A stretch of 55,088 bases of DNA, from positions 42,857-97,944 of the forward strand of contig CADBVG010000007.1 of the NCBI GenBank assembly GCA_902798105.1, written 5' to 3'. This document shows, piece by piece, positions 14,245 to 47,419 of this stretch. A program made the position numbers and the translations under genes. A model generated the notes under the pieces. It saw only the letters and a program-made list of their open reading frames with translations, made no database searches and was not told the DNA's origin. The stretch is from an uncultured Eubacteriales bacterium (GTDB lineage: Bacteria; Bacillota; Clostridia; Christensenellales; Aristaeellaceae). The number at the start of each line of letters is the position of its first letter. Within the stretch, counting starts at the first letter, position 1.

Positions 14245-15510
14245 TCATATCGACCGAGACGCCGTGTCTGCCTTCTGATTTCCGTGACGTATCAATATGG
14301 ACAGCGATTTCATGTCATTCAGATCCGTAAGGGGGTTCAATTCCGGAAGCCTTGACAGCAGCACCCATACGCAGAACATCATAAAGATCGTATACCGGTG
14401 CACGGGCGTCGCGATCCAAAGTATGCTGTAGACCCCAAGCTGCGTTGCTGCGATTTGCCTGAGCTTGTTGTCGCTAATATCGCATACGCTCAGCACATAT
14501 CCCGCAATCAGTACGATAAATATGAACAACAGCACGATACCGCCATAATAGAGCATATCCAGATAGTAATTATGGCACGAATTGACCGCCTGGATCTTTG
14601 CATACTTTTCCTCGGCCGTCTCTACGCCATAGCCAATCAATGGCCGCGACATGATCCAGCGAACGCTCGCCTCCCAGATGAACGTTCGCTTCGACAGCGT
14701 CATGTTCTTCTTCAGTACAGTGGTGATAAACCAGGCAAATTTCTCCTGCAAGTGGAATACCGCGAGTACCAGTGTCGCCCCGGCGGAAGCCATCAGGAAA
14801 TAGGCGCACCGGAAGAACCTGGCAAACGGCATTTCAAAGACGAAGTAAAACAGCGCGAATATCGCGACGCAGATAATCGCGTTGGCCGACCAGGTGAAAA
14901 GGACCATATAGAAGGAGCATATGATCAGAATCAGCACATGCAGATCCAGCTTGCCCTTTCGGATATAGGATTCCACCATCGACAGGCTGATCACCGGAAT
15001 GATGTATTCAATCGCATTGTTTTCATGTCCCAGGAAGAAGCCACGGCTGAAGTCTGTGGTGTTGACATCGTTTACCACGGTGTACAGGCCTGCGGGCCGC
15101 AGCAGCACGGTCACCAGATTGATCCAAAACAACGCTTCGAAGGCAATCCTGAGCGTCGAGACCGTCTTGATCAGGCTCCGTCCGGAATAGAAATCGACAA
15201 TGCGTATAAAGCACAGCGAGAACGCCAGGTTTTTTATCTCAGGAATTGCAAGGGAATAGTGCCCGGACAATACCGTGCTCAGCGAAAGCACGAGGTAAAA
15301 CATGAAGATTCCAACATACCAGAAGACCCTTTTGACATCGAATTGCTTCATATTGAAGCACAGTATCCAAAGACATGCCGCATAGCGGTATGCCTTGTAG
15401 ATAAGGGCAATCTTTGGAAAGGTCATCAAATAGGGCGGTTGCAGGAACGCCATAATGAAGGCCAGCATTTCCGGGAAAAACCCGGATTCCAAAAAGTTCA
15501 ACAATTCCAT
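14245..15510 (-). CDS. O-antigen polymerase/ligase-like membrane protein (Wzy type)
   Basis: 421 residues, about 11 hydrophobic helices with one larger loop. The Wzy_C-type signature is readable: a helix-rich N-half, then WEASVRWIMSRPLIGYGVETAEEKYAKIQAVNSCHNYYLDMLYYGG, where the R-P-L-x-G-x-G and H-N-x-x-L-x-x-x-Y-x-G spacing marks polymerases and ligases of lipid-linked glycans. It would join repeat units on the outer face of the membrane. Ribosome site AGAGG eight bases before the ATG. GC content is visibly lower than in the flanking genes. Last gene of the compact glycan run. Confidence 0.82.
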   Translation of the reverse strand: MELLNFLESGFFPEMLAFIMAFLQPPYLMTFPKIALIYKAYRYAACLWILCFNMKQFDVKRVFWYVGIFMFYLVLSLSTVLSGHYSLAIPEIKNLAFSLCFIRIVDFYSGRSLIKTVSTLRIAFEALFWINLVTVLLRPAGLYTVVNDVNTTDFSRGFFLGHENNAIEYIIPVISLSMVESYIRKGKLDLHVLILIICSFYMVLFTWSANAIICVAIFALFYFVFEMPFARFFRCAYFLMASAGATLVLAVFHLQEKFAWFITTVLKKNMTLSKRTFIWEASVRWIMSRPLIGYGVETAEEKYAKIQAVNSCHNYYLDMLYYGGIVLLFIFIVLIAGYVLSVCDISDNKLRQIAATQLGVYSILWIATPVHRYTIFMMFCVWVLLSRLPELNPLTDLNDMKSLSILIRHGNQKADTASRSI

Positions 15511-15532: not shown

Positions 15533-16990
15533 TTAATTCTTCCGCTTCCTCAGCGACATAATCTGGCGCAGCGCCCCCATGATCCGCTTCCGTGCGATGA
15601 TGGCGGCAATCAGCATCGCTGCGATCACGCCGTACCGGACCAGCGGATAGTTGTAGGTGGCCATGAGGGAAAAACCAATCGCAAGAAACGCAGTGTAAAA
15701 CACGATCAGCCCCTTAGCGGGATAGATATCGACGTTCCCAAGCTTTTCCCGGCATATCTTCTTCATGAAGCTGTAATGGGCAACCACATATACCATAAAG
15801 CAGAATAACGTGGTATATGCTGCGGCGCAGTACCCATAGCGCTTGATAAAGACATAGTTCAGAGCGACGTTGAGTATCGCCCCCGTCATGCTCGCCACCA
15901 TGATGTATTTTGTCTTTTCAAAATAGAATTCAAACTTGGCAAACAGATCATAGGAAAAGACGAACAACACGCTCATGGCCACCGGCGGGATCACCCATAT
16001 CGCCTCGTGGTAGGATGGCGGCGCGAATGCCATGACGACCTCCGGCGCCACGGTGATGAGCGCAAGGTTGACCACGGCAATCAGCCCCATGGCCAGGTAG
16101 GCAACCCTTGAAATGTCCTCCACCCGGTTATCCTTGATCTTCTGGTAGATCCAGGGGCTCAGGGTGTGGGACAGGGCCGTATTGAACAGCAGCATGATCT
16201 GGGAAATGGAATAGGCCAGGCTGTAGATGCCGGCCTCGCTCGACCCCACCATGTTTTTGATCATGATGCGGTCCGCGCTGTTGAGCACCGTCTGCGACAG
16301 GTAGTGCGGCACCAGCGGCAGGTTGAACATCAGGGCGTGCTTCCAGTATTTTCGGGAATAGAACTGCTTTCCCCGCTTCATCTGGATGATGAAGAAGCCC
16401 ACATAGCCCACCAGCTCCACCAATGCCAGACCCAGTATGCGGGCCGTCACCTTGTCGGTGGCGTGCCTGATGCAAATGATGCCGACCACCGGCTTGGCGA
16501 TGGATACCGCCAGGGTCGCGATGACCAGCCGCTGGTAACGGTATTCCACCCGCTGCTCGCCCGCCCAGAGGTTGAAGGCGGCGGTGGCCCAGATCATCAC
16601 CAGCATCGCCAGCATCTGTACCGTCGTCAGCGTAAACAGCCGGTTCCAGTATTCACGGAACATCAGGTAGACCACGGTCCAGCCGACGCAGAGCACCAGT
16701 GTCAGCCCCTGCAGCGACGAGGAATAGCGCCTGCGGTCATCTGAATACTTCACCAGGCCCTGGATGTACACGCCGCTGTACAGGTGCAGGGATACGAATA
16801 TCGTTATGATCCTCAGCCACGAGTCGAACACGCTGTACTGGCCGTATTCCGCCGTGGACAGCAGGCGGGTGAAAACCGGCGTGGTGATGACCGATATGCC
16901 CTTTTGCAGGAAGGAACAGATCAGGAACCAGAAGGAAGCCCTGACCTGAACCGGAAAGCGTTTGTATTTGTTCCAGGCTTTACTCAACAT
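15533..16990 (-). CDS. Polysaccharide flippase (Wzx/MOP superfamily)
   Basis: 485 residues with about 14 helices. Starts with VRASFWFLICSFLQKGISVITTPVFTRLLSTAEYGQYSVFDSW, the classic N-terminus of MurJ/Wzx-like flippases (K-G-I-S, T-P-x-F-T-R-L-L-S-x-x-E-Y-G). Later segments NSADRIMIKNMVGSSEAGIYSLAYSISQIM are also typical. It should move the undecaprenyl-linked repeat unit across the membrane. The start lacks a good Shine-Dalgarno at normal spacing; it sits 24 bases after the stop of the asparagine-synthetase-like gene, so coupling is likely. GC drops towards the 3' end. Confidence 0.88.
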   Translation of the reverse strand: MLSKAWNKYKRFPVQVRASFWFLICSFLQKGISVITTPVFTRLLSTAEYGQYSVFDSWLRIITIFVSLHLYSGVYIQGLVKYSDDRRRYSSSLQGLTLVLCVGWTVVYLMFREYWNRLFTLTTVQMLAMLVMIWATAAFNLWAGEQRVEYRYQRLVIATLAVSIAKPVVGIICIRHATDKVTARILGLALVELVGYVGFFIIQMKRGKQFYSRKYWKHALMFNLPLVPHYLSQTVLNSADRIMIKNMVGSSEAGIYSLAYSISQIMLLFNTALSHTLSPWIYQKIKDNRVEDISRVAYLAMGLIAVVNLALITVAPEVVMAFAPPSYHEAIWVIPPVAMSVLFVFSYDLFAKFEFYFEKTKYIMVASMTGAILNVALNYVFIKRYGYCAAAYTTLFCFMVYVVAHYSFMKKICREKLGNVDIYPAKGLIVFYTAFLAIGFSLMATYNYPLVRYGVIAAMLIAAIIARKRIMGALRQIMSLRKRKN

Positions 16991-18092: not shown

Positions 18093-18527
18093 TCATTTCA
18101 CGTCGGTCAGCGAATCCTTGCGCACAGCCTTCAGCGCCTCGGTAATCCTGGTGGAGGAAACGCCCCGCGTATATGGGAAGTATATGATCTTTATACCCTC
18201 TTTGGCAAACGCCTTCTCGTATTCCATCCACTTCTCGGTGCCATACCAGTCGTCGCCGACGAACAGGTAGGACGCGCCTAGCGCCTTGCAGGCCCTCAGC
18301 TTGTCCATGTCGTACTGGGGCACGGCGGCGTCCACATACCGGCACGCCCGCACGATCTCGATGCGGTCCTCAAAGGGAATCATGGCGTTCTTCCCCTTGT
18401 ACTGCACCAGCTCATCCACGGTGACGCCCACAATCAGCTTGTCGCACATGCCCTTCGCGTTCTTGAGCAGGTTCAGGTGGCCGATGTGAAACAAATCATA
18501 TACACCTGTCGTGTAGCCAATTACCAT
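18093..18527 (-). CDS. tagD: Cytidylyltransferase, TagD-like (glycerol-3-phosphate type)
   Basis: 144 residues, one domain. The nucleotidyltransferase HxGH motif is at residues 14-17 (YDLFHIGHLNLLKNAK), and RGVSSTRI near the C-terminus matches the RTxGISTT motif of glycerol-3-phosphate cytidylyltransferases. TagD makes CDP-glycerol from CTP and sn-glycerol-3-phosphate. The gene is 13 bases downstream of a CDP-glycerol-transferase-like gene, so the donor and the enzyme using it are adjacent. Ribosome site AGAGGAGA. Close relatives use ribitol, ethanolamine or other phospho-alcohols, so the alcohol is not certain. Confidence 0.88.
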   Translation of the reverse strand: MVIGYTTGVYDLFHIGHLNLLKNAKGMCDKLIVGVTVDELVQYKGKNAMIPFEDRIEIVRACRYVDAAVPQYDMDKLRACKALGASYLFVGDDWYGTEKWMEYEKAFAKEGIKIIYFPYTRGVSSTRITEALKAVRKDSLTDVK

Positions 18528-18540
18528 CTGTCTTCTCCTC

Positions 18541-19710
18541 TCACCGGCCGGATTGGGGCGGGTATTTCTCGATGAAATCCATCAATCGCTTGCAGTTGTT
18601 GTCGTCCTGATACTTGAACACCTTGTCCGTCAGCGCCTTCCGCTCGGCCTGGTGGTCGTCCTTTCCCTGTTTGAGGTCCTCCAGGAAGCCCAGCAGATCG
18701 TCAAAGTGCTCCAGCTTGCGGCCAGGCATCTCCGCTACGGGATCGTCGATGACGAATCCCCGGCTGTACGCGTCCATATCGCTGATCATGAAGCCGATGG
18801 GGCGGTTCAGCAGCAGGAAATCATAGTAGATCGACGAGTAGTCCGTCAGCAGCGCGTCGCAGTTTTCGAGCAGCTGGTAGAGCTGGATATCCCGGTCGCA
18901 CAGCTCCAGTGGCGCCAGGAACCGGATATTAGTCAAGCTCTCCATCCTGACGCAGGAAAGGTCCTGCATGGGATGGGGCTTGATGATCATCAATACGTTG
19001 TTGGCCACCAGCCAGTCGTCCAGCCGCCTTTGCTCCGCCTCACTGCGGATGAGGTTCATGCCATAGGTATTGACAAAGGACGAATCGATAAAGTTCCGGT
19101 TTTGCCTGAAGGTCTCCATGACGATGACGACCTTGGCATACTTATGGCCGGGGTAGAGCTCGCTGACGCAATCCCGGTGCCTATAGAGCAGGTCAAGGCG
19201 CGGCATGCCGATGACCAGGAAGTGGCTCTCCGGCTTGCCTGTGGTCTTCATCATCTTCCTCAGGCCGTCCTCCCCACACCTGAGCCGGTAGGTGGGCGCG
19301 CTGCGCCACGCGGTCTTCTGCAATTCGCCACCCGCCGCCTTCAGCTGGGAAGCCGAGTGGGTGGTATTGATAAAAACCTGGTCCTTTCGCCACCGGCCAA
19401 TGGGCGTCCTGTGGGTATGGACGACAAATTTGGCCCGCGCCAGGTAGTAATCCCTGCGAAACAGCACCCATTTGGATTCACCGCAGACAAACCGCACATT
19501 TTCTTCCGGCTTGTACTTTTCAGGCTTCTCCACCAGCCAGATGATCCTGTACTTCCTGTTATAGCCCCTGTCGATCAGGTATTGGTAAAACGCCCAGGCG
19601 TTATCGCTGTAATCGGGCAGGCTGTGAAGCACGATCATGTTCCTGGATATGGGCAACAGGCTCATGCATTTGATCAGGCTGTAGTCGATCAGTCTCGAAA
19701 GCTTTGCCAT
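18541..19710 (-). CDS. CDP-glycerol glycerophosphotransferase-like protein (TagB/TagF family)
   Basis: 389 residues. The C-terminal half has the family hallmark DALLTDYSSIYYDFLLLNRPIGFMISDMDAYSRGFVID; the centre carries HTHRTPIGRWRKDQVFINTTHS, where the histidine after INT-T is the usual catalytic position. It would transfer glycerol phosphate (or an analogue) from the CDP-linked donor to the glycan. ATG 19710 is preferred: AAGGAG lies nine bases upstream, whereas the in-frame start 36 bases earlier has none. N-terminal residues SLIKCMSLLPISRNMIVLHSLPDYSDNAWAFY suggest membrane-surface attachment. Confidence 0.87.
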   Translation of the reverse strand: MAKLSRLIDYSLIKCMSLLPISRNMIVLHSLPDYSDNAWAFYQYLIDRGYNRKYRIIWLVEKPEKYKPEENVRFVCGESKWVLFRRDYYLARAKFVVHTHRTPIGRWRKDQVFINTTHSASQLKAAGGELQKTAWRSAPTYRLRCGEDGLRKMMKTTGKPESHFLVIGMPRLDLLYRHRDCVSELYPGHKYAKVVIVMETFRQNRNFIDSSFVNTYGMNLIRSEAEQRRLDDWLVANNVLMIIKPHPMQDLSCVRMESLTNIRFLAPLELCDRDIQLYQLLENCDALLTDYSSIYYDFLLLNRPIGFMISDMDAYSRGFVIDDPVAEMPGRKLEHFDDLLGFLEDLKQGKDDHQAERKALTDKVFKYQDDNNCKRLMDFIEKYPPQSGR

Positions 19711-19754
19711 CGTCAGTATCTCCTTCAAGCGTATCGTATACCGCAAAAATCCAA

Positions 19755-23094: not shown

Positions 23095-24051
23095 TTAATC
23101 CATGCGATAAGGCTCGTAGCGCTCGGCGAAGCGCGCCCCGACGGCGACCTCGCCGAATTCGCAGGGCTCGCCGTCCGCGATGCGCATGGCGTTCAGCACC
23201 GTATCCACCCCCGCCATGCAGGTATACAGGGTGCCCGCGGAGAAGCGGGGGTTGATCTCAATGATCCTGTAGCCGCTCCCGGTATCAAAGTATTCCATGT
23301 TGCAGACCCCGTTCAAATCCAGTTTCTCCATCAGGGCACCGCAGACGCGCTCCAGTTCGGGATCGTGAAAGATCTCAACAGCGATGCCACAGCCGTTGGC
23401 GTTGCGCAGAAGCTCCCGCCGCTGGATCTGCCGCGCCTGGCCGGTCTTGCGATTCCGGACGCAGTCCACAGTGATGTTCTGGCCCTCCACATAATCCTGC
23501 ACGAGCACACGCCTGCCGATATCACCGCCATCGACGGCTGTCAGCAACGCGTCGTAGCTGTCGATCCGCCGGCATCCGTTGCTGCCCACACCCTCCACAG
23601 GCTTGATGAACAGGGGGTACACAGCATTCCGGGCCTCATCAAGGGAATCGTAGGATCGTATGGCGATTTCGGGCATATACCTCGCCACCCAGCGTCCAAA
23701 TGCGTCCTTGAAGTGGCATGCTTCGGCGAATTCCCGGTTGACCACGCACAGCCTGGTGCCGACGGCTTCAAACCGCTCCCGGTTCCGTGCGAGGTTGACC
23801 ACCTCTTTGTCGATCACCGCGTAGTAATAATCCACGCTGTGAGCCCTGCAAAAGTCCAGCGCGAAGGGAATGTAGTCGTCATTGACGGCGAGGGGAAAGC
23901 GGTAGAATTCATCCACATCCAGGGACGTGGCAATCTCATGGCGCGCGTTGATATCCGCGCCGATGAGGCGATAGCCTCCACGGGCCTTCAGCCGCCTGAC
24001 CACCGCCGTGGCGGTCACCGTTCCAATCGCCGTAACCAGAACCGTCTTCAT
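23095..24051 (-). CDS. ATP-grasp ligase, second of two
   Basis: 318 residues. MKTVLVTAIGTVTATAVVRRLKA at the start is a preATP-grasp fold; YPLFIKPVEGVGSNGCRRI and VLVQDYVEGQNITVDCVRN form the ATP-grasp core, and RIIEINPRFSAGTLYTCMAGVD provides the metal-binding E-x-N-P-R-x-S-G. This C-terminal signature is shared with CarB-like and PylC-like ligases. The ATG at 24051 overlaps the stop of the upstream sugar transferase by four bases, which fixes the start. It is not a close copy of the neighbouring ATP-grasp gene, so the two probably act on different bonds. Confidence 0.82.
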   Translation of the reverse strand: MKTVLVTAIGTVTATAVVRRLKARGGYRLIGADINARHEIATSLDVDEFYRFPLAVNDDYIPFALDFCRAHSVDYYYAVIDKEVVNLARNRERFEAVGTRLCVVNREFAEACHFKDAFGRWVARYMPEIAIRSYDSLDEARNAVYPLFIKPVEGVGSNGCRRIDSYDALLTAVDGGDIGRRVLVQDYVEGQNITVDCVRNRKTGQARQIQRRELLRNANGCGIAVEIFHDPELERVCGALMEKLDLNGVCNMEYFDTGSGYRIIEINPRFSAGTLYTCMAGVDTVLNAMRIADGEPCEFGEVAVGARFAERYEPYRMD

Positions 24052-24851
24052 GCCGTCGTCTTCTCCTTCGCCATCATGCTCCTGTAGACGTTCATGCTGA
24101 TGGCCACGCCGTCTGCGTTGTAGCCCACGAAGTAGCTGATGCCGTTCCCCGAGGCCTGGTCGCCCCGCCTGGTGAAGGTGAATGCCATCTTCACCAGCAG
24201 CAGTACCAGCTTGATATCCAGCCAAAGGCTGACATTCTCCACGTACCAGACGTCATTTTCAAAGGTGCGCTGGTATTTACAGATCGCCTCCCCGGGAACA
24301 TGGATGACCCGGGGACACTCCAAACCCGGCCGGACGGCAGTGCGCATCCTGTGCCGATCGCTCATGCGCTCGTAGAGGAATACCGGCTGTGGGCGCGGCC
24401 CGATGATGGACATATCCCCCTTCAGCACCGACCAGAAATTCAAAAGCTCGTCCAGCGACAGCTTGCGCATGAACTTCCCGAACTTCGTCACCCTCTGGGA
24501 CGGGGGCAGCAGCTTGCCGTCCGCGTCGGTCTTGTTGTTCATGTTGCGAAATTTGACCAGAGTAAAGTGTTTGCCATCCTTTCCCACCCGGGTCTGCTGG
24601 TAGAAGATCGGGCGACCGACATCGAAGAAAGTGCATATTCCGAAGACGCAGTTCAACGGCAGCAGCACGATAAACACCGGCAGTGAAATCAGTATGTCCA
24701 GCGCCCGCTTGCCCACGCGCGTATAGAAGCTGTTCCTTGGGTGAACCGGCGCCGATATCGCGTTGGTATGCGCCAGGTTGGCCTCCCGGAGCATCTGCGC
24801 CACGCGCTCCTCCTCATTGGATATGAGGCTGGCGTTTCCCTTGGTTTCCAT
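24048..24851 (-). CDS. Monotopic phosphosugar transferase (undecaprenyl-phosphate acceptor)
   Basis: 267 residues: a ~45-residue soluble lead, one hydrophobic re-entrant helix (ALDILISLPVFIVLLPLNCVFGICTFF), then the bacterial sugar transferase core PIFYQQTRVGKDGKHFTLVKFRNM, LSLDELLNFWSVLKGDMSIIGPRPQ. Asp134-Glu135 matches the catalytic Asp-Glu dyad of PglC. It puts the first sugar phosphate on undecaprenyl phosphate, starting the glycan. Only the catalytic module is here: the four-helix plus Rossmann-like N-terminal half of the larger WbaP/WcaJ type is absent, and just such a half is fused to the sugar ketoisomerase two genes upstream. Confidence 0.9.
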   Translation of the reverse strand: METKGNASLISNEEERVAQMLREANLAHTNAISAPVHPRNSFYTRVGKRALDILISLPVFIVLLPLNCVFGICTFFDVGRPIFYQQTRVGKDGKHFTLVKFRNMNNKTDADGKLLPPSQRVTKFGKFMRKLSLDELLNFWSVLKGDMSIIGPRPQPVFLYERMSDRHRMRTAVRPGLECPRVIHVPGEAICKYQRTFENDVWYVENVSLWLDIKLVLLLVKMAFTFTRRGDQASGNGISYFVGYNADGVAISMNVYRSMMAKEKTTA

Positions 24852-24857
24852 CTGCTG

Positions 24858-25958
24858 TCATCCCTCAAAAGCATTGATCGCGTCAATGACGCATTCGATT
24901 TCCCCGTCGGTCATGCCGTAGTACATCGGCAGGCTGAGCTCCGTCGCGCTGATCGTCTCTGCGATGGGATAATCGCCCTGCTTGAAGCCCAGATCCCGGT
25001 AGCATTCCTGAAGGTGCATCGGTATCGGATAGTGCTTGTTGGTGCCGATGCCCCGAGCCTTCAGGTGTTGCTCCAGCGCGTCCCGGGCGTCGCATCGCAC
25101 GGCGAAGATGTGCCAGACCGGCACGCAATCCTCGCGCACGCAGGGCAGCTCTACCCGGGGATTATGCATTTCGCGGATGTATCGCTCCGCGATGCGCCTG
25201 CGGTCTGCGTTCATCCTGTCCAGGTGGGGCAGCTTCGCCGAGAGAAAGGCCGCCTGGAGCTCGTCGAGCCGGCTGTTGTTGCCCTTGTAGATGTGGTGGT
25301 ACCTGTAGTCCGAGCCGTAGTTGCCCAGGGCACGCACCTTTTCCGCAAGCGCGCCGTCATTGGTCACCACCGCGCCGGCGTCGCCCAGCGCGCCCAGGTT
25401 TTTGCCGGGATAGAAGCTGAACCCCGCCGCGTTGCCGAAGGTGCCCACTCTGCGGCCCTTGTAGGTCGCGCCATGGGCCTGGGCGCAGTCCTCCACCACC
25501 TTCAGGCCGTGACTGCGGGCGATGGCCATGATCGCGTCCATGTCGCAGGCCTGGCCGTACAGGTGCACCGGCACGATAGCTTTCGTATGCCCTGTGATCG
25601 CCTCTTCAATCCGCGCCGGATCGATGTTGTAGGTGTGAATGTCCGGTTCGACGAACACCACCTTCGCGCCCACATAGGTGACGGCCAGCGCCGTGGCGAT
25701 AAAGGTATTCGAGGGCACGATCACCTCGTCTCCCGCGCCGATGCCCAGCGCCTTCAGGGCCAGCATCAGCGCGTCAAGTCCGTTGCCCACGCCGATGCAG
25801 TGCCGTGCGCCGCAATAACCGGCAAACGCCCGCTCAAATGCCTCGTCCTCGGCGCCGCTGACGTACCACGAGCGCGTGAAAACCCTGTCGAAAGCTCCAC
25901 GCAGGTCCTGCTCCAGCTCACGCTCCATGGGCAGGAAGGATGCGAACGGTATCTTCAT
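24858..25958 (-). CDS. PLP-dependent sugar aminotransferase (DegT/DnrJ/EryC1/StrS), FdtB/QdtB-like
   Basis: 366 residues. Motifs: [58 protein letters not shown], and the PLP lysine K186 in [19 protein letters not shown]. The family aminates 3- or 4-keto nucleotide sugars using glutamate. Because the gene upstream makes an FdtA/QdtA-type 3-keto sugar, a dTDP-3-amino-3,6-dideoxyhexose (Fuc3N or Qui3N) is the likely product. ATG 25958 is chosen: GAGGAG lies seven bases upstream; the GTG 15 bases earlier overlaps the stop of the previous gene and has no site. Confidence 0.9.
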
Positions 25959-25969
25959 GTCGATGCTCC

Positions 25970-27127
25970 TCACGTCATGCCATCGCCCCGGGGAAGGGTT
26001 TCCCGGTTCCTGTAGGCGATGAACTCATCGTAATTGCGAATGTATTCCTTTTCATCGTAGTATTCCGAGGCCAGCACGCACAGCACCGAGCCGCTCTCCC
26101 GCCAGACCATCTCGCGCCACAGGCCCGGCATCAGCAGCAGCCCCTTGCGCGGTCCGTCCAGCGTCACCGTCTTCTTCTCGTTGGAACCATCATCCAGTAT
26201 GATGTCAATCTTACCGTGGGGGCAAAACAACAGCTGGCAATTCTGCTTGTGGGCATGAAAGCCCCGGTGCTGGTCCGCCTCAGTCTGGGTGATCCAGTAG
26301 ACGCGGCGAATCGGGAAGGGAATGTCCCGCTTGCCTTCGAGGAACGACAGCGCGCCGTACTTCGGGTCCTCATTGGCAACGGTCTTCAATTCGAGGATGC
26401 GGTATTCAAAGTCCACAAAGTCAATGGCGACGCCCATCTCCTCGCAGGCGTGCTTCAGCTTTTCGGGAATCATCTGGTGGTCGAGGCCGTAGATGTAGAC
26501 CCTGTCCAGGGGCGTCCAGCAGATGCAGGCGGTGGCCTCGTCCTCGGTTTGCACCTCGTCGATGTCATCCCGGCTCTGGCCCTTGCCGGCCTTGAGCAGG
26601 AAGATTGCCCTGACATCGACGCCGGACTTTGTCAGCGTGTCGATGCCCTCATCCAGGAATTTATCGGTGGTCATCAGCAGGGCCGTGGGCGTCCTGCCGC
26701 GCTTGAGCAATCGTCTGAGCAGCTCCTTCCAGGCGATGTGGGTACCCACCAGCAGTATCAGGTCGATGATATAGGCCAGGTACACCGTGAAGCGGGAATA
26801 ATCCGCGCCCAGCTTGGTGGTAAACAGCACCAGGGCCAGCAGCACAAAGCTGAGGGCCACATGCTTTATCGACTCGACGAGTTCCTTTAATGCCCGCCGC
26901 ATCAGCACGCGGTTCAGCGTATTGAAGGCGATGGTGATGAACACATCAATCACAAGCATGAACACCACGATGGACCAGTGGTCCGCGTAGCTGTAGCGAT
27001 GCCGCCTGGTGTTGTGGGTATTCATGTAGACCCATGCCGCGAGCATGTTCGCCCCGGCAAGACACAGCAGGTTCAGCAGCACAAAGCTGATGTATTTCAG
27101 CTTCCCGTATCGCAATTGGTTTTTCAC
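25970..27127 (-). CDS. Membrane-anchored sugar 3,4-ketoisomerase (FdtA-like cupin fused to a phosphosugar-transferase N-terminal half)
   Basis: 385 residues in three parts. Residues ~11-132 form four hydrophobic helices. Residues ~145-245 look like the Rossmann-like segment found in long WcaJ/WbaP-type transferases ([31 protein letters not shown]). Residues ~252-375 are an FdtA/WxcM-like cupin: [22 protein letters not shown], the HAH pair at 291-293 ([14 protein letters not shown]), [31 protein letters not shown]. The cupin converts dTDP-4-keto-6-deoxyglucose to the 3-keto isomer for the adjacent aminotransferase. Free ketoisomerases are small soluble enzymes; here the enzyme is tied to the membrane. 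The start is GTG 27127 with only a weak AGAGG about 11 bases away. Synthesis is probably coupled to tmk. Confidence 0.88.
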
Positions 27128-27846: not shown

Positions 27847-30800
27847 CTATTTGCCAGCCTTACCCGTCGCCGGGTTCGTCATCTGACCCTGGGCATCGTA
27901 ATAGGTCTCGCGGATCAGCTGGCGCTTGCCGTCGTATTCCCGCTGAACCTCGGCGTAGCCGTTGACCGTGTTTACAGGATTGCCTTCGGAATCGAAGTAG
28001 CGCACCGCGGTGATGTTCCCGTCCCGGTCGTATTCCCGTTCAAGCCAGGCATAGCCGTTCACGCATTCGATGAGTTCGCCGTCGACGCCGTAATAGCTCT
28101 CCTTGACCACCTTTTTGCGGCTGTTGTACTCCCTTCGGTACTCGGCGTAGCCCTTGTCAATCAGCATCACATTGCCCCTGGCATCCAGGTAGCGGCGCAT
28201 ATATGGGTTCCCAACCCCGTCATAGCCGATCTCCACGCCAAACTGGCCGGTGGGCAGCGCAACAGGCTTACCGCCGACGCCGTAGTAGCGCTCTGACGTT
28301 ATCTGCTTCACGCGGTTGTATTCCCGATGGACCTCCGCGTAGCCGGCGGATATCATCACCGGATTATCTTCAAGATCGAGGAAGCGCTGCACGACGGCGT
28401 TGCCTGCCTCGTCGTACTCACGCTCATTGGCGGCGAACCCCCTGGAACACAGCGTCGGCGCGCCTTCGGCGTCATAGTAGGACTCCTTTATGATCTGGTG
28501 CAGCCCGTCGTACTTGCGCCGGACCTCCGCGTATCCCTTATTGGCCAGTACGACCGGATGGCCACTCTCGTCCAGGTACCTGCGCATGGACACATTGCCC
28601 GCGCGGTCGTAGGCCATTTCGACGCCGTAGCAGCCCTCTGAGAGCCGGATCGGCCGGCCGTCGGCACCGTAGTACAGCTCACGCACGACCTGCTTTTTAT
28701 CATTGTAGGCCCTGCGCACCTGCGCGTAGCCGGAGGATATGACGCAGGGCAGTCCGTCCGTATTGAAGTAGCGCAGAAGTGCGATGTTGCCCGCGGCATC
28801 GTATTCCATTTCAACAAAGGCATACCCGGAAGCGACGGTGATGGGTTTATCGTCGGGACCGTAGTATTCCACTCGCACAACCTGGCGCCTCACGTTATAC
28901 ACCTGGCGCTTGCGGGCATAGCCGCCACTGACGATAACCGGCTGGCCATCGCAATCGTAGTAGGACAGGCAGGTGACATTTCCCTGACCGTCGTACTCGT
29001 AATCGCAGGCAAACCAGCCCTCCTTGCGCAGAACTGGCTGGCCATCCCGGCCATAGTATTCGTCACGGACCTTCTTCAGTTTTGAATTGTAGAAGGAGTG
29101 GACATCGTACACGGGTGTGCGAACAAAGCGTATCTCGCTGACATCCACCCGGCAGCCGGGGGCGGCGACGGCCTCGAAGGCCACGCTTCGGCTGCTGGCA
29201 ATTTTGAACGGTATCGAAACGCTCAGCTGCCCTTGCTCGTCAAACTGGTCGCCCGAGACTTCTTTTTCAAGGATGACGTTATCGCCCTTGTTGATGGTCA
29301 GCCGCAGCGTGCATACGGTCTCCTTCCCGCGCGACGCGCCCTCGGGCAAGCCCAACGTCCAGGTCATCGTGTACCTGCCGCCATACAGGTCCCTCCAGGG
29401 GCCGTTTTGCATGGCTCCGGCGCTGCCGTCCAGCCGAACACCTCGCTGGGGATCGTATTCCAGCGCGTTGAGCGCGGAAGCCTCCTCGAGATCAACGCGC
29501 TGAACGCCGCTGTAGTAACCCGTGGCCTGGTATCCTGCAGCGGTCAGCGCTTCAACGACGGCACGGTCGCCGGTATAGAGCGCATGGGTCTGTGAGACAG
29601 GCACGTACAGGAACCCGTTGTGGATAAAGGTGCCCCGTTCGGTATCGGAGGGCAACAGCACGGTGTTGCCCGGCAGTCGGGCCATGTCGTCCTCGAAGAA
29701 GGGCGCATAGCTGAGGCCGTCGATCTTTCGGGCGTAAAGCTCCGGCAGCACGCCGGAAAAGACCTTGCCGGTGGCGGATTTCACGGCAATCTCCATCGCC
29801 TGCCGGTCCGCCTCCACCATGGCCTCGTTCTCCCCTGCGGCGCGGTTGATGATACCATTGGCAAACATGCCCAACCCGCCGGCAACGATCGCGCAACCCA
29901 ACAGAACCGCCACGGGAGCGCGGGCTCCCCGGGGCTTCCCAGCCAGCAGCGCTTTTATGGCGTGACTTACCGACCATAACACCGCACACCCGCCGAACAT
30001 CACGCCAAGGAGCACGTAGATCAGCCGAAGGGCATGCGTGCCATGGCCATATCCCATGATTTCAAGCGCGGTTTTCAGCCACGCCATCAGCCTTGGACCA
30101 AACAGGCAAGCGCCGAGAATCAGCAGCAATACCGTGCCAACCCAGGCGACGACAGTTGCCTTGCCATCGCCTTTCGCCCGGGATTCGGACAGTTGATTCT
30201 GTACCGGCTCCCTCTGCGACAGATAGGCCGCCAGCGGCATCGCCAGCAGGATGTTGAAATGGACGTCGATAAAGTGGTGCTCCGAGAACGAATGTACAGC
30301 GATGATGCCCAATACCAGCACCAGACGCCTGTCCCCGCAGCGTATGGCCTTTCGAGCTGTCCAACCCCAGGACAGGCACAGCGCGATGAACAGCACCCAG
30401 CCATAGCGCAGGATGATCAGCGGGTACGAGCTGTCTACAAAGGTGTAGTTGGGCTGCGGAAATACGGAAAAGCCGTCGCCGTGCAGCACAAAGGGCGTGC
30501 CGAAGGGCTTCACCCCGTAGGTCTGCCAGGCGGTCACCTGGTATTTAAGGCGGTTGGATAGCAGGCTATTCAGCTTGAATCCCAGGTTCATCCCCCGTGC
30601 ATACATCGCCATCATCCCAAGCATGCACAGCGCCAGCAGTGGGAAGGACAGCGTCGAGAACAGGTTTACACCCCGCTTCATCCATCTCATATTGGGATGC
30701 CGCCGGTCGATCCCCCGCTCATAAATGTGGTACAGTATCGCGCAGAACAGCAGGGCCAAGCAAATCGTGCTTGTGCTGCTGTGGGCAATAAACCACGCCA

Positions 30801-31374
30801 CCGCGCCAAATACCGCGCAGATCAGCAGCATCGCCCAGTCCGGCAGCCTGTCCGCCGCCACCCACAGCGCCAACAGCAGGTAAAAGCCCAGCGACGCAAA
30901 ATCCGTAGGATAGCTGATGCCCCAGGCGCTCCTTAGTCCGTTTTTGATGCGAACATAATTCGTGATGACGCCGAGGTAACCCGCCAGCACAGTCACGCAA
31001 TACAGCGTACCCGCCGTCAACAGGAACATGCGCAATATCTTCCTGTGCCCGATGTCGATGAATCCCACAGTCAGGATACTCAAGAACGGCAGGAAGGAGT
31101 AACCGTCCGTGCGGTATATCATGCCGTAAATCAACGCAAAAGCCAGCGCAACCAGCGTCTCCCTGCGCCACAGTTTGCCCGTCAGAAGCCGCAATAAAGC
31201 GATCAAAGTCAACCCATGCATCAGACCCGGCTCGAACCAGCTTGGCCAAATCAGGTGAAACGTGGTTGACTTCGATATCCTGTACAGTATATAAAGCCCC
31301 GCCAGCGCCAAAAACAGCACTTCCAACAGCCGGGCCATGCGCCTGTATGCTTTGCTCTCTCTGTTGATCGTCAT
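27847..31374 (-). CDS. Wzy-like membrane polymerase fused to an extracytoplasmic YD-like repeat domain
   Basis: 1175 residues. Residues ~10-390 are a polytopic O-antigen-polymerase-like region (AWGISYPTDFASLGFYLLLAL, NRLKYQVTAWQTYGVKPFGTPF, SSYPLIILRYGWVLF, SFSEHHFIDVHFN). Three further helices follow to ~525, then an extracytoplasmic region with a beta-rich stretch (CTLRLTINKGDNVILEKEVSG, ~690-760). From residue 773 to the end are twelve 32-residue repeats and a partial thirteenth, each starting YYG/D-x-x-G-x-P and holding GYA near position 14. They alternate strictly between type A (EYD-x-x-GN) and type B (REYN-x-x-KQ). It probably polymerises or ligates the glycan while the tail binds it or the wall. 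The ATG follows an in-frame TAA directly, and no clear ribosome site is seen, so the start is uncertain. First gene after the locus promoter. Confidence 0.85.
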   Translation of the reverse strand: MTINRESKAYRRMARLLEVLFLALAGLYILYRISKSTTFHLIWPSWFEPGLMHGLTLIALLRLLTGKLWRRETLVALAFALIYGMIYRTDGYSFLPFLSILTVGFIDIGHRKILRMFLLTAGTLYCVTVLAGYLGVITNYVRIKNGLRSAWGISYPTDFASLGFYLLLALWVAADRLPDWAMLLICAVFGAVAWFIAHSSTSTICLALLFCAILYHIYERGIDRRHPNMRWMKRGVNLFSTLSFPLLALCMLGMMAMYARGMNLGFKLNSLLSNRLKYQVTAWQTYGVKPFGTPFVLHGDGFSVFPQPNYTFVDSSYPLIILRYGWVLFIALCLSWGWTARKAIRCGDRRLVLVLGIIAVHSFSEHHFIDVHFNILLAMPLAAYLSQREPVQNQLSESRAKGDGKATVVAWVGTVLLLILGACLFGPRLMAWLKTALEIMGYGHGTHALRLIYVLLGVMFGGCAVLWSVSHAIKALLAGKPRGARAPVAVLLGCAIVAGGLGMFANGIINRAAGENEAMVEADRQAMEIAVKSATGKVFSGVLPELYARKIDGLSYAPFFEDDMARLPGNTVLLPSDTERGTFIHNGFLYVPVSQTHALYTGDRAVVEALTAAGYQATGYYSGVQRVDLEEASALNALEYDPQRGVRLDGSAGAMQNGPWRDLYGGRYTMTWTLGLPEGASRGKETVCTLRLTINKGDNVILEKEVSGDQFDEQGQLSVSIPFKIASSRSVAFEAVAAPGCRVDVSEIRFVRTPVYDVHSFYNSKLKKVRDEYYGRDGQPVLRKEGWFACDYEYDGQGNVTCLSYYDCDGQPVIVSGGYARKRQVYNVRRQVVRVEYYGPDDKPITVASGYAFVEMEYDAAGNIALLRYFNTDGLPCVISSGYAQVRRAYNDKKQVVRELYYGADGRPIRLSEGCYGVEMAYDRAGNVSMRRYLDESGHPVVLANKGYAEVRRKYDGLHQIIKESYYDAEGAPTLCSRGFAANEREYDEAGNAVVQRFLDLEDNPVMISAGYAEVHREYNRVKQITSERYYGVGGKPVALPTGQFGVEIGYDGVGNPYMRRYLDARGNVMLIDKGYAEYRREYNSRKKVVKESYYGVDGELIECVNGYAWLEREYDRDGNITAVRYFDSEGNPVNTVNGYAEVQREYDGKRQLIRETYYDAQGQMTNPATGKAGK

Positions 31375-42422: not shown

Positions 42423-43574
42423 TTAATACACCTTGATGTTCCACAGCTTCCCGTTGTCGCCCTCCTTGATCACGCAGAAGGTATACGCGGTGGGATAGAC
42501 CGCTTCTCCCTTCTGGGTCTTGAGGACCGTATCGAAGCTGACGCGGCATGTGAAGCAGTCGTCGGCCAACACGTAGAACTCGGAGACCACCTCGTCTCTG
42601 AATGAGATGCCATTGTGAGGCGTGGCGAAGGTGTTCGAGAGGTTGTCGAAGATGTCTTCGGCGGGGCTGCCCTTGGCACAGATGCGCTCGATGGCCTTCT
42701 TCTTCGCGTCCTTGTTCATGAACTTGGCCACCTGCTTCGCCAGGGCGATGGCCGCGTTGCCGTACTGCTGTGCATAGGCCTCGTCAGACTTCATCGGACA
42801 GGACCAAGTCAGCGCCTTGCCCTCTACGGCCTCCACGTTCATCGGCGCGCCGGTATCGTCCTCTGCCTGGATCTGCGGGGTTTCGGTCGCGGCGTCGTAC
42901 AGGTATTCCACCAGGGTGGGATTGGTCACGCCCGGGGGGAGGAAATCCGCTTCATACAGCGACTTTTCGGACGTCGTGGCGTTTTCCGCGCTCAGGTTTT
43001 CGCCATCTACGGTCACGGTGTAGCCCGCGGGAGCCGTAATGCGGCAGGTATAGACCACCTCCGGCACCTCGGGCTCGGGCGTAGCTTCGGGCTCCGGCTC
43101 AGGCGTGGCCTGCTGCAGCGCCACCAGCGTGGTGACGGAGTCCAGCTTCCACAATCGGTTTCCCCCGGCAGAGGTCTGGCCGCTGGGCACCAGCGTGAAG
43201 GTAGCGAAGCGCTCGCCGTCCAGCCTGACGTTGTACTTGCGCTCGTCCTTGTTGGCGGAAAAGGCGGTGTCCCATTCCACCCGCTTGCCCGACATCAGCT
43301 GCTTCAGGTTGTCCACATAGAGCGCCTTGTCGCCGCCCTCGAACTGTCCGGCGGATGTATCGTAATTGTAGATGGCCTCGTAGTCGGCGTTTTCAAACAG
43401 CCTGGCCACGTCCTGGGCCACGTACTTGGGCTGGGCGGATTCGTAGTCCGCCAGCACCCCGCGCAGCCAGAAGGTGCCAATGACGATGGCCACCAGCGCC
43501 AGGCCGACCAGCACAAAATACACGCGGTAGAATTTGCTGCGCCAGATGCTCTTCTTTTTCTTCTTCCTGCTCAT
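42423..43574 (-). CDS. Membrane-anchored partner protein, copy 2 of duplicated cassette
   Basis: 383 residues. Basic lead MSRKKKKKSIWRSKFYR, one helix (VYFVLVGLALVAIVIGTFWL), then an extracytoplasmic part starting DYESAQPKYVAQDVARLFENADYEAIY. A Pro/Glu insert (~170-185) separates two domains. The C-terminus has DDCFTCRVSFDTVL and YPTAYTFCVIKEGDNGKLWNIKVY, with three cysteines shared with its paralog at 44967-46094; the fold may be NTF2-like, but I do not recognise a named family. It follows the phosphodiester-glycosidase gene by 11 bases, exactly as the paralog follows its partner, so the pair probably works together. ATG 43574 has GGAGG at five bases. It ends two bases before the inverted-repeat element. 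Confidence 0.8.
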   Translation of the reverse strand: MSRKKKKKSIWRSKFYRVYFVLVGLALVAIVIGTFWLRGVLADYESAQPKYVAQDVARLFENADYEAIYNYDTSAGQFEGGDKALYVDNLKQLMSGKRVEWDTAFSANKDERKYNVRLDGERFATFTLVPSGQTSAGGNRLWKLDSVTTLVALQQATPEPEPEATPEPEVPEVVYTCRITAPAGYTVTVDGENLSAENATTSEKSLYEADFLPPGVTNPTLVEYLYDAATETPQIQAEDDTGAPMNVEAVEGKALTWSCPMKSDEAYAQQYGNAAIALAKQVAKFMNKDAKKKAIERICAKGSPAEDIFDNLSNTFATPHNGISFRDEVVSEFYVLADDCFTCRVSFDTVLKTQKGEAVYPTAYTFCVIKEGDNGKLWNIKVY

Positions 43575-43585
43575 GTGTCCCTCCG

Positions 43586-44731
43586 TCAACGCACGATGAA
43601 GGCCGTCGGCATCTTGCGCGATCCGGTCAGCACGACGCCACTGTTGAGGTATTCACCCTTGTAGTACATCAGCGAGGACGATCCGCCGTCCATGTTGATG
43701 GCATTGACCGCGCCGTATTCCAGCATAATGGAAATCAGGTCGGAATAGGTCGCGCCCAGGCTGGAGGCCTGACGGCCGTCGATGACCAGCATCAGCACCG
43801 CGCCGTCCTTGCGCTGGCCGATGGCCGTGCGGGGGTTCAGGCCGGAGCTCTCGCCCTTGATGGCGGCGGGCTCGCCGTTCACGATCAGCGCGGGGCCGAA
43901 GGTGATAGCGTCGCGAATGCCCTTGGCCTTGGCGTCGTCGTCGGACATGTTCTTGGCCAGGACCATGATGTTGTTTGTATCGAAGCCCACGGTGATGTTG
44001 TAGTTCCTGTCCCTGCCGGTGTGCTTCAGCTTGCCCTCGGAGACCACCAGGCCCACTGGTGTGCCGCCGTTACCCACGCCGCCGCTGTCCTCGAAGCCGC
44101 CGCCGTTGATGGCCGCGATGGCGTCGTAGCGCTTGGCGATGTCCTTGAGCTGCAGGCCCTTGGAGCCGTCGAACTTGTCCCGGCAGGTGCCCACGGTGAC
44201 CCGGGATGGGTCGTGCACCACCATCATATAACCCTGGTAGGTGCCGCCCACCACGCTGAACACGTCGATGCCGTCCTCGGAAGACAGCAGGTTTTCCGGC
44301 GGCGGCGTGGGGCTGGGGGTCACCTCAACCTGGGCCTCCTGCGCACGCGCCTGCGCCGCGGCGATCTCCTCAGGCGAGGGCGTTGGCGTGGGCTTTTCGA
44401 TGACGATCAACGAGGTATCGGTCTCGCTGTCCCCGGCGGAGACGGAGTTGCGCTCCAGAATCGCGTCCACCTCTTCATTGCTGTAATAGATGTGGGGCAC
44501 GAATTTAAGGGCGCTGGTCTCCTGCATGGAGACAGTCAGCAGGTCGCCGATGGTCTGGGAGGGGCCCCTGAACGCGGCGTAGCCCGCGCACAGCGCGCCG
44601 ACCAGCACCAGGCCGATGACAGTCAGCACCGACAGCGTCACCCGCCAGGCGACGCGCCTGACCCTGCGCCTGCGGCGACGCTGGGCCCGGGTCAGTTTTT
44701 TGCGGGATACAGGCTTTTTCTCGTTTTCCAT
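43586..44731 (-). CDS. Phosphodiester-glycosidase (NAGPA-type) domain protein, copy 2
   Basis: 381 residues. Basic lead (SRKKLTRAQRRRRRRVRRVAWR), one helix, a ~90-residue linker with PTPTPSPEE, then the phosphodiester glycosidase domain: GYMMVVHDPSRVTVGTC, AIAAINGGGFED, GNGGTPVGLVV, DAITFGPALIVNGEPA, NPRTAIGQRKDGAVLMLVIDGRQ, GAVNAINMDGGSSSLMYYKGEYLN. The mammalian homologue uncovers mannose-6-phosphate from a GlcNAc-phosphodiester; bacterial members act on surface phosphodiester glycans. The catalytic-looking INGGGF and MDGGSSS segments are intact. ATG 44731, GGAGG at six bases. Confidence 0.9.
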   Translation of the reverse strand: MENEKKPVSRKKLTRAQRRRRRRVRRVAWRVTLSVLTVIGLVLVGALCAGYAAFRGPSQTIGDLLTVSMQETSALKFVPHIYYSNEEVDAILERNSVSAGDSETDTSLIVIEKPTPTPSPEEIAAAQARAQEAQVEVTPSPTPPPENLLSSEDGIDVFSVVGGTYQGYMMVVHDPSRVTVGTCRDKFDGSKGLQLKDIAKRYDAIAAINGGGFEDSGGVGNGGTPVGLVVSEGKLKHTGRDRNYNITVGFDTNNIMVLAKNMSDDDAKAKGIRDAITFGPALIVNGEPAAIKGESSGLNPRTAIGQRKDGAVLMLVIDGRQASSLGATYSDLISIMLEYGAVNAINMDGGSSSLMYYKGEYLNSGVVLTGSRKMPTAFIVR

Positions 44732-44770
44732 CGTAATCCTCCGGGGATGGGTTTGAGTGTAGAGAGGGGA

Positions 44771-44963
44771 AGATCCTTTGACTCCGGCTTCGCCTCCGCT
44801 CAGGATGACATCGCAACGCGATCGCCTGTCATTCTGAGCGCAGCGAAGACGGTACATGTGGCGGCGGCAGTCTGCCGCTATGCGCCGTCGCCCTGTAGCG
44901 GCGGCCCCTGGGCCGCCATAACAGTGCGCCACGGTGGCAGCGCGGGCGCCGCAGCTACACAGG
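44771..44963. repeat. Cluster of dispersed repeats between the two cassette copies
   Basis: Contains an inverted pair ATCCTTTGACTCCGGCTTCGCC...TCAGGATGACA / GCCTGTCATTCTGAGCGCAGCGAAG, then two GC-rich hairpins including CTGTAGCGGCGGCCC / GGGCCGCCATAACAG. It makes up the whole 235-base gap, suggesting repeats accumulated at the duplication junction. Confidence 0.6.
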
Positions 44964-44966
44964 GCA

Positions 44967-46094: not shown

Positions 46095-46105
46095 CGTTGC
46101 CTCCG

Positions 46106-47248: not shown

Positions 47249-47419
47249 CTTATCACTGCCTTCCAGACGGCCAAATGACCGGTTTACATACAAATACACG
47301 TTATTCTATCATTTTTAATCGCGTATTTGGTTGCAGGACTGTTAATGTTCGGGCTTGAATCTATATTAGATCCTTCGCAAAGCGAAGGACCCGGCGTTGG
47401 AAGATATGGTTTGAAAGGC

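What the first reader, a model, noticed from the sequence alone, without database searches (positions are those of the whole stretch)
27847..31374. Polymerase-like membrane protein with a strict A/B alternating 32-residue repeat tail
Residues 773-1175 hold twelve 32-residue repeats (one with a single extra residue) plus a partial one. Odd repeats carry EYD-x-x-GN, even ones REYN-x-x-KQ or close variants, so the true unit is a 64-residue pair. Repeats of this YD/RHS-like kind are usually found in secreted proteins; here they hang on a Wzy-like polytopic membrane protein that heads a glycan locus. The tail may hold the growing polymer, set its length, or anchor to the wall.
Basis: partly seen in the sequence, partly recalled or inferred. 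Interest (0 to 1): 0.75.

Follow-up and report, generated by a model that had tools for sequence, protein, structure and literature searches.

The report
Polysaccharide polymerase with external repeat arm
A gut bacterium's membrane enzyme that probably strings sugar units into a surface polymer carries, outside the cell membrane, a long built-in arm of YD-type repeats; the same fusion recurs in other gut bacteria and may hold or measure the growing chain.

Summary
On the MINUS strand, 27847-31374 encodes 1175 residues ending in twelve repeats (eleven of 32 residues, one of 33) that alternate A/B, plus a stub. It is not an assembly join: a same-genus protein is 86% identical over residues 1-1172, and 11 of 31 loci from a GTDB-wide scan carry core plus tail, with 4-13 scored repeats. 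Tail dN/dS is 0.13-0.16. The model has one beta-hairpin per repeat; Foldseek's twelve best PDB matches are Rhs/Tc/teneurin YD repeats, but global fits are poor and no Rhs core was found. A jelly-roll resembling CBM6 (but also other sandwiches) precedes the tail. The membrane half is a remote Wzy/WaaL relative (profile E 1.5e-4; controls 0.19-0.36) with two arginines and, where O-antigen ligases have His, an invariant Asp, as in published polymerase families. Foldseek found no solved relative of this half. Best reading: Asp-type polymerase with an extracytoplasmic glycan-engaging arm. Activity, binding and length control are untested. A Wzz-like gene exists elsewhere in the genome, weakening a 'ruler instead of Wzz' idea.

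The parts
27847..31374 (-). Whole gene, 1175 aa: membrane core + external alpha/beta domain + CBM-like sandwich + YD-type repeat arm
   Evidence: full-length AF2 model mean pLDDT 87.8, pTM 0.71
29830..31374 (-). Membrane core, residues 1-515, remote Wzy/WaaL-superfamily
   Evidence: hhalign E 1.5e-4 over residues 121-371; AF2 of residues 1-520 pLDDT 90.6; positive-inside 26 K+R of 94 inner vs 9 of 117 outer loop residues (loops placed by me from the model, external part after 516 left out)
30931..30933 (-). Arg148, aligned with first conserved Arg of PF04932 proteins
   Evidence: R 24 of 25, K 1 of 25
30550..30552 (-). Arg275, aligned with second conserved Arg
   Evidence: 25 of 25
30433..30435 (-). 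Asp314, at the position of the ligase His
   Evidence: D 25 of 25; PF04932 set H 28 of 31, D 3 of 31
30274..30294 (-). H361-x3-E365-H-H367 motif; in the profile alignment H361 and E365 fall on a His and a Glu of PF04932 protein L093
   Evidence: H361, E365, H367 each 25 of 25; alignment
29455..29826 (-). External alpha/beta domain, residues 517-640
   Evidence: AF2 secondary structure
29119..29442 (-). Beta-sandwich, residues 645-752, to which I assign the CBM6-like fold matches
   Evidence: AF2 strands; Foldseek 5fui E 6.5e-5, TMt 0.67 (aligned range not reported, non-CBM sandwiches match too)
27904..29058 (-). Twelve alternating A/B repeats, residues 773-1157
27850..27903 (-). 18-residue repeat stub, residues 1158-1175
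   Evidence: pLDDT blocks fall to 68 and 41
14245..15510 (-). Separate Pfam Wzy_C protein with Arg275/His313 (ligase-type signature)
   Evidence: PF04932 1.3e-11; R275 and H313 invariant in 6 of 6
15533..16990 (-). Wzx-type flippase
   Evidence: PF01943 8.8e-20
24048..24851 (-). Initiating sugar-phosphate transferase (Bac_transf)
   Evidence: PF02397 2e-48
24858..27127 (-). DegT aminotransferase and FdtA-type sugar isomerase genes
   Evidence: PF01041 4.9e-124, PF05523 2.3e-40
18093..19746 (-). CTP-transferase-like and CDP-glycerol glycerophosphotransferase-like genes
   Evidence: PF01467 1.6e-20, PF04464 4.9e-46

Best explanation
An undecaprenyl-pyrophosphate-using polysaccharide polymerase of the Wzy/WaaL superfamily (Asp type) that carries its own extracytoplasmic arm. 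The core's external face (R148, R275, D314, H361/E365/H367) joins lipid-linked repeat units; after the last transmembrane helix an alpha/beta domain and a CBM6-like sandwich sit above the active site, followed by a 12-hairpin YD-type ribbon reaching into the wall zone. The arm most likely engages the growing glycan, keeping it at the enzyme (processivity, hence length) and/or guiding it to the next enzyme or the wall. Shown by computation: repeats, fold of tail, remote family relation, conservation, topology consistent with an outside tail. Inferred: Und-PP chemistry, polymerase rather than ligase, glycan binding, effect on length.
For: Profile alignment to 31 PF04932 proteins E 1.5e-4, prob 52%, against controls Wzx 0.19, GT-C 0.36, YfhO 0.19. 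Sub-threshold PF04932 matches in family member L009 (3.2e-4 for one genome) and in L037 (2.1e-5), whose last helices, external part and tail match P0001. R/R/D landmarks 24, 25, 25 of 25; PMC10920833 section 11 (read whole) reports His in O-ligases and Asp or Glu at that place in SEDS and the clan's polymerase families except GT127. Bac_transf homologue next to, or one gene from, the family gene in 10 of 31 scanned loci (L053, L058, L059, L063-L067, L073, L075); a Wzz-like gene beside it in 3 of 31 (L053, L055, L067). CBM6, CBM15 and lectin folds among the matches at E<=0.001. Sub-threshold ILEI match at the tail end of L007/L055, one protein (2.9e-4), and L058 (0.019); ILEI-type domains can bind GlcNAc (PMC9802357, abstract and passages). 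Tail dN/dS 0.158 and 0.134; unit i best matches unit i in 12 of 12 units of L051.
Against: P0001 has no Pfam Wzy hit, and PF04932 reached E 0.1 in 0 of 25 trimmed family cores (PF11846 Wzy_C_2 in 1 of 25 at 0.012). 0 PDB matches at E<=0.001 for the membrane half. The hhalign probability is only 52%, and the control profiles held fewer rows (6, 5 and 2) than the PF04932 set (31). PDB sequence searches of P0001 and A1 gave nothing meaningful. Tail-less members work without the arm: 13 of 24 full-length loci and the genome's own paralogue L002. A His-type Wzy_C protein in the same locus could be the polymerase. The sandwich matches are not specific: sandwiches of a Bt delta-endotoxin, CDTb, hinokiresinol synthase and PorU are also at E<=0.001. 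Unit-by-unit orthology fades with distance: in L052 10 of 13 units plus one tie, in L053 5 of 11 plus one tie. No glycan-binding residue was identified. L060 and L077 lie near prepilin-like genes, pointing to other roles in some relatives.
Confidence: 0.43

Rival explanations
1. The core is a ligase or O-oligosaccharyltransferase (WaaL/PglL-like) that moves finished glycan onto wall or protein acceptors, and the arm binds the acceptor; the separate Wzy_C protein is the polymerase.
For: A separate PF04932 gene lies on the same contig within about 16 kb of the tail gene in 6 (G000, G017, G008, G025, G018, G447) of 13 tail-bearing genomes searched (places compared). Two relatives, L060 and L077, are near N_methyl prepilin genes. 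PMC10920833 notes that ligase-family members occur in Gram-positives (passage). P0001 sits with conserved head genes in L051 and L052.
Against: D314 is 25 of 25 where ligases have His, while the Wzy_C proteins of these loci have His in 6 of 6. LytR-CpsA-Psr proteins, the usual wall ligases of monoderms (recalled), occur in 13 of 13 genomes. A Wzz-like gene is adjacent in 3 of 31 loci, a polymerase context.
Confidence: 0.23
2. The arm does not touch glycan: it is a spacer or scaffold that anchors the enzyme to the wall or to partner proteins.
For: The same repeats are the bulk of secreted-looking proteins up to 2780 aa and are joined to TIR, VanZ and other membrane halves, so they are a general extracytoplasmic module. 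YD repeats are known scaffolds (PMC6425310, passages). The sandwich's CBM likeness is not specific.
Against: CBM6-type folds are among the best matches for the sandwich. Pfam shows no known wall-binding domain in P0001. In the closest relative each unit is individually conserved (12 of 12), more than a plain spacer needs.
Confidence: 0.24
3. The tail is a surface display module for cell-cell or phage interactions, unconnected with synthesis.
For: Repeat number varies among relatives, and repeats occur in 20 of 28 genus genomes, own included, in several architectures.
Against: Purifying selection (dN/dS 0.13-0.16), no sign of diversifying change. The viral-contig scan gave no relative, but its patterns came from the core only.
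Confidence: 0.09
4. Artefact: two genes fused by a sequencing or assembly error.
For: None found.
Against: Same joint in L051-L060 and L076 (11 of 31 loci) and a similar fusion in L083 of another family; no stop inside.
Confidence: 0.01

Closest known systems
Wzy/WaaL superfamily, CAZy clan GT-C1 (PF04932; GT119, GT121, GT125-129)
   Same: Remote profile similarity, order R-R-(Asp) in the external loops, glycan-locus setting
   Different: Below Pfam cut-off; extra C-terminal helices and a 660-residue extracytoplasmic part; no solved-fold match found; no CAZy assignment tested
YD/Rhs repeats (Tc toxin BC shells, Rhs effectors, teneurins)
   Same: One beta-hairpin per repeat; Foldseek E 2e-13 to 9.2e-10; profile match to Rhs protein 7q97 at 2.1e-5
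   Different: Strict 32-aa unit in A/B pairs, at most 14 scored units on the polymerase-like cores counted, no Rhs core found, hung on a membrane enzyme; TM-scores 0.08-0.33
CBM6-type beta-sandwich
   Same: Fold match 5fui E 6.5e-5, TMt 0.67
   Different: No Pfam CBM hit; non-CBM sandwiches match at similar E; binding residues unknown
Wzz/PCP chain-length regulators
   Same: Would serve the same task if the arm sets length
   Different: Separate proteins; a Wzz-like gene lies beside 3 of 31 family genes, and on another contig in the own genome
POMGnT1 (glycosyltransferase with ILEI-type stem)
   Same: An enzyme carrying a sugar-binding stem domain; sub-threshold ILEI match in L007/L055 and L058
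   Different: Unrelated enzyme; P0001 itself has no ILEI match

Membership tests
Wzy/WaaL superfamily (GT-C1 / PF04932) | Sequence relation by profile | tested here: met
   hhalign E 1.5e-4 (52%) vs controls 0.19-0.36; weak; controls had fewer rows
Wzy/WaaL superfamily (GT-C1 / PF04932) | Pfam PF04932 over curated cut-off | tested here: not met
   P0001 no hit; A4 0 of 25 at E<=0.1; relative L037 24.8 bits vs 31.7
Wzy/WaaL superfamily (GT-C1 / PF04932) | Two outer-face Arg plus Asp/Glu/His | tested here: met
   R148 24/25, R275 25/25, D314 25/25
Wzy/WaaL superfamily (GT-C1 / PF04932) | Fold of solved WaaL/SEDS | tested here: inconclusive
   Foldseek gave no match at E<=0.001 and no WaaL or SEDS among the 50 listed; second aligner unavailable
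O-antigen ligase (GT121) | Catalytic His at the third landmark | tested here: not met
   Asp in 25 of 25
Wzy polymerase | Polymerises Und-PP repeat units | not testable with these tools
   needs biochemistry
YD/Rhs repeat | One beta-hairpin per repeat with the YD signature | tested here: met
YD/Rhs repeat | Pfam RHS_repeat over cut-off | tested here: not met
   P0001 13.3 vs 22 bits; NCBIfam TIGR01643 15.9 vs 15.8 bits, E 0.014; secreted relative L031 88.2 bits
YD shell (Tc/teneurin) | Closed shell with Rhs-associated core domain | tested here: not met
   no core domain by Pfam, tail ends in a stub, low TM; the model's overall shape could not be viewed
CBM6-like module | Beta-sandwich fold of CBM6 type | tested here: inconclusive
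   5fui 6.5e-5, 1uxz 1.5e-4, 1gny 5.3e-4, but also non-CBM sandwiches, and aligned ranges are not printed
CBM6-like module | Sugar binding | not testable with these tools
   needs glycan array or ITC

The most novel reading that the evidence does not exclude
A self-contained, single-chain polysaccharide polymerase with a built-in molecular ruler: the number of YD hairpins on the enzyme sets the length of the polymer, in place of or beside a separate Wzz co-polymerase, and the same extracytoplasmic cassette has been put on more than one Wzy-type core (P0001 type and the L037/L019 type).
Probability: 0.1. Interest if true: 0.8.

Novelty: new variant of a known kind. Interest (0 to 1): 0.55.

Why it matters
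How Wzy-type polymerases stop at a given length is, to my knowledge, not settled. Here is a natural series of homologous polymerase-like proteins with 0, 4, 5, 8, 9, 10, 11, 12, 13 and 14 scored repeats, so a length-versus-repeats test becomes possible. It also shows YD repeats, known mostly from toxins and teneurins, as part of a likely biosynthetic enzyme. No held paper contains both 'YD repeat' and 'Wzy' (0 papers); the one with 'RHS repeat' and 'Wzy' mentions them apart (passages). Subscription papers and annotation databases were not searched.

Tried and rejected
Led nowhere: Pfam and NCBIfam scans of P0001 and PHROGs (0 families); PDB sequence search of P0001, of A1, and of two Wzy_C queries; viral-contig scan, 0 relatives from 7 pattern matches, patterns from the core only; Foldseek on the membrane half; a first hhalign against 6 divergent Wzy_C rows gave E 0.002, 13.7%, and did not cover the catalytic loop, so I used a 31-protein set.

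Rejected: gene-fusion artefact (orthologues); closed YD shell (no core domain found); P0001 as the only Wzy-like enzyme of the locus; P0001 as His-type ligase.

The PF02706 model misses the Wzz-like gene beside L053; searching with that protein finds a homologue in the own genome on another contig (G000:C2, E 3.1e-89) and in 5 of 8 genomes searched. I therefore lowered the ruler reading from 0.13 to 0.10 and the best explanation from 0.45 to 0.43. L083 has 14 scored repeats, not the 17 I had counted by eye.

Dropped rows: of the 31 loci, seven were left out of the tree and the tail tally as fragments, short or weak (L067, L073, L075, L078-L081); L067, L073 and L075 are contig-end pieces whose tail state is unknown. 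In the same-contig Wzy_C count the other 7 of 13 are: G009 (tail gene near a contig end), G002 (no hit), G281 (hits on other contigs), G448-G451 (could not be mapped, or elsewhere). The tail label needs 3 changes on the tree, with long branches and open forks. The scorer misses diverged units, so counts are lower bounds.
Full report
OBSERVATION. The window's ORF 27847-31374 lies on the minus strand and gives 1175 aa from ATG. The tail splits into twelve units from residue 773 to 1157, eleven of 32 residues and one of 33, plus an 18-residue stub. Identity is highest at lag 64 (0.348), then lag 32 (0.254); 2000 shuffles never exceeded 0.142 at any lag from 20 to 129. Odd units resemble odd and even resemble even (0.42 each) more than each other (0.27); the odd/even split is best of 462 balanced splits. 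At DNA level units are 33-62% alike, which suggests an old array rather than a recent expansion.

NOT AN ARTEFACT. Among 60 relatives searched, 27 had a match to P0001; a same-genus protein is 86% identical over 1-1172 and others 67, 57 and 56%. A GTDB-wide scan, with patterns from the membrane core, returned 31 loci. By local BLAST and reading of tails, 11 of 31 carry core plus repeats, 13 of 31 are full length without repeats, 7 of 31 are fragments or too short or weak to tell. Record titles of the 11 name Clostridiales or Clostridia, Oribacterium, Butyrivibrio, Erysipelotrichaceae and one Atopobiaceae MAG (Actinomycetota; a binning error cannot be excluded). A further member with 14 scored repeats (L083) lies in another family of the class. 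Scored repeats per tail range from 4 to 13 in L051-L060, L076 and P0001, mostly at exact 32-residue spacing; 120 shuffled proteins scored 0 units. On a 26-row tree the tail label needs 3 changes, against 9.0 in shuffles, so it was lost or gained a few times; deep forks are unresolved.

SELECTION. P0001 against L051: dN/dS 0.109 membrane, 0.179 external domains, 0.158 tail. Against L052: 0.213, 0.134, 0.134 (dS 1.2-1.8, near saturation). In L051 each of 12 units best matches the unit of the same number; in L052 10 of 13 do plus one tie; in L053 5 of 11 plus one tie; in L054 and L055 few. So the arm is functional and, over short distances, each hairpin has its own constraint.

STRUCTURE. AlphaFold2 on P0001 with 24 relatives gave mean pLDDT 87.8, pTM 0.71; most tail blocks exceed 90. 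Each unit is strand-turn-strand plus a short bridge. Foldseek's first 12 PDB matches are Rhs effectors, Tc toxin BC components and teneurin (E 2.0e-13 to 9.2e-10), with TM-scores 0.08-0.33: same local fold, different global shape. Ranks 13-18 are mostly carbohydrate-active or CBM proteins (5g56, 5fui CBM6, 1uxz and 1uy0 CBM6, 1gny CBM15; a neurotoxin complex at rank 15). The rest of the 28 matches at E<=0.001 include lectins but also sandwiches without sugar binding that I know of (hinokiresinol synthase, Bt delta-endotoxin, CDTb, PorU), so the CBM likeness is not specific. I assign these matches to 645-752 by strand content, since aligned ranges are not printed. The repeat profile also matches the Rhs protein 7q97 by sequence (2.1e-5).

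MEMBRANE HALF. Residues 1-520 model at pLDDT 90.6. Foldseek found no solved relative (0 at E<=0.001): a negative I cannot explain away. By profile, the family aligns over residues 121-371 with 31 PF04932 proteins (30 from genomes of the same class, plus the window's own) at E 1.5e-4, probability 52%; three other polytopic families, with fewer rows (Wzx 6, GT-C 5, YfhO 2), gave 0.19, 0.36 and 0.19. The alignment puts R148, R275 and D314 on the conserved Arg (31/31), Arg (31/31) and His (28 His, 3 Asp of 31). PMC10920833 section 11 (read whole) gives Arg-191, Arg-265 and His-313 for O-ligase 7TPG and reports Asp in SEDS and Asp or Glu in the clan's polymerase families except GT127. The mapping from 7TPG to the PF04932 rows is by motif and order, since a PDB sequence search did not find it. 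The window's other superfamily protein, 14245-15510, has His, as have 5 of 5 other Wzy_C proteins taken from these loci. So the locus seems to hold an Asp-type (polymerase-like) and a His-type (ligase-like) enzyme; PMC12502699 (passages) notes that Wzy_C domains also occur in polymerases, so His alone does not prove a ligase.

LOCUS. Minus-strand genes from 31374 down to 14245 include a thymidylate-kinase-like protein, an FdtA fusion, DegT, Bac_transf, two ATP-grasps, epimerase, GT4, CDP-glycerol transferase-like, CTP-transferase-like, asparagine-synthase-like, Wzx and Wzy_C; a YfhO gene follows. The set suggests, by recall of pathways, a repeat unit with a 3-amino-3,6-dideoxyhexose and glycerol phosphate. 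In relatives a Bac_transf homologue is adjacent or one gene away in 10 of 31 loci and a Wzz-like gene in 3 of 31 (no Pfam hit for the two tested; sub-threshold Wzz match 0.0016 at the L055 copy). That Wzz-like protein has a homologue in 5 of 8 genus genomes searched, in G000 and G017 on other contigs than the tail gene; PF02706 itself found none in G000. A separate PF04932 gene lies within about 16 kb on the same contig in 6 of 13 tail-bearing genomes searched; in 5 genus genomes with only tail-less members (G016, G019, G021, G023, G027) none lies on the family gene's contig, G019's hit being the family member itself. LytR-CpsA-Psr proteins occur in 13 of 13 genomes.

MODULE ELSEWHERE. The 64-residue profile matches 20 of 28 genus genomes, 5 of 391 class genomes and 2 of 299 phylum genomes, the own one included each time; the samples overlap. 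In the own genome all six matches are in P0001. Elsewhere the repeats form secreted-looking proteins (L031, 2780 aa, RHS_repeat 3.5e-25), TIR fusions (L048, L084), a VanZ fusion (L044) and fusions with other membrane halves (L045, L049, L082). L037 and L019 carry P0001-like last helices, external domains and repeats on a different Wzy-type core (L037: 30% identity over P0001 359-909; PF04932 2.1e-5), which suggests that the extracytoplasmic cassette is exchangeable.

JUDGEMENT. The architecture is well supported; membership in the Wzy/WaaL superfamily and polymerase over ligase moderately; glycan engagement by the arm is an inference from the CBM-like sandwich and sub-threshold ILEI-like ends; length control is speculative but testable.

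Noticed in passing
25970-27127 (-): FdtA-type sugar isomerase domain (residues 242-373) at the end of a predicted membrane protein with a sub-threshold CoA_binding_3 match, an unusual fusion with homologues in L051 and L052.
   Followed up: no
L048:716-3640, L084:1918-5688: TIR domain, then a hydrophobic segment (by eye), then the same YD-type repeats, in two different families of the class: looks like a receptor with an intracellular TIR.
   Followed up: partly
L018:1492-4281, L038:1959-4802: VanZ-like N-terminal half (by eye) in front of a tail-less P0001-family core.
   Followed up: no
L002:36-1428: The own genome's tail-less paralogue is preceded by two HAD-like ORFs (by eye), one with a ParB-like start, not by recognisable glycan genes; a similar upstream gene occurs in L071.
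   Followed up: no
L060, L074, L077: Family members beside GT-C-like membrane proteins (by eye) and an FAD amine-oxidase-like protein (Pfam tested for L060 only); L060 and L077 also near prepilin genes: possible pilus glycosylation cassette.
   Followed up: partly
42423-47299 (-): Two neighbouring gene pairs look like a tandem duplication of a two-gene unit (42423/44967 and 43586/46106 translations alike by eye).
   Followed up: no
L019:1513-4365: In G013 the similarity to P0001 spans one in-frame TGA in the search output; I used the frame only up to the stop.
   Followed up: no
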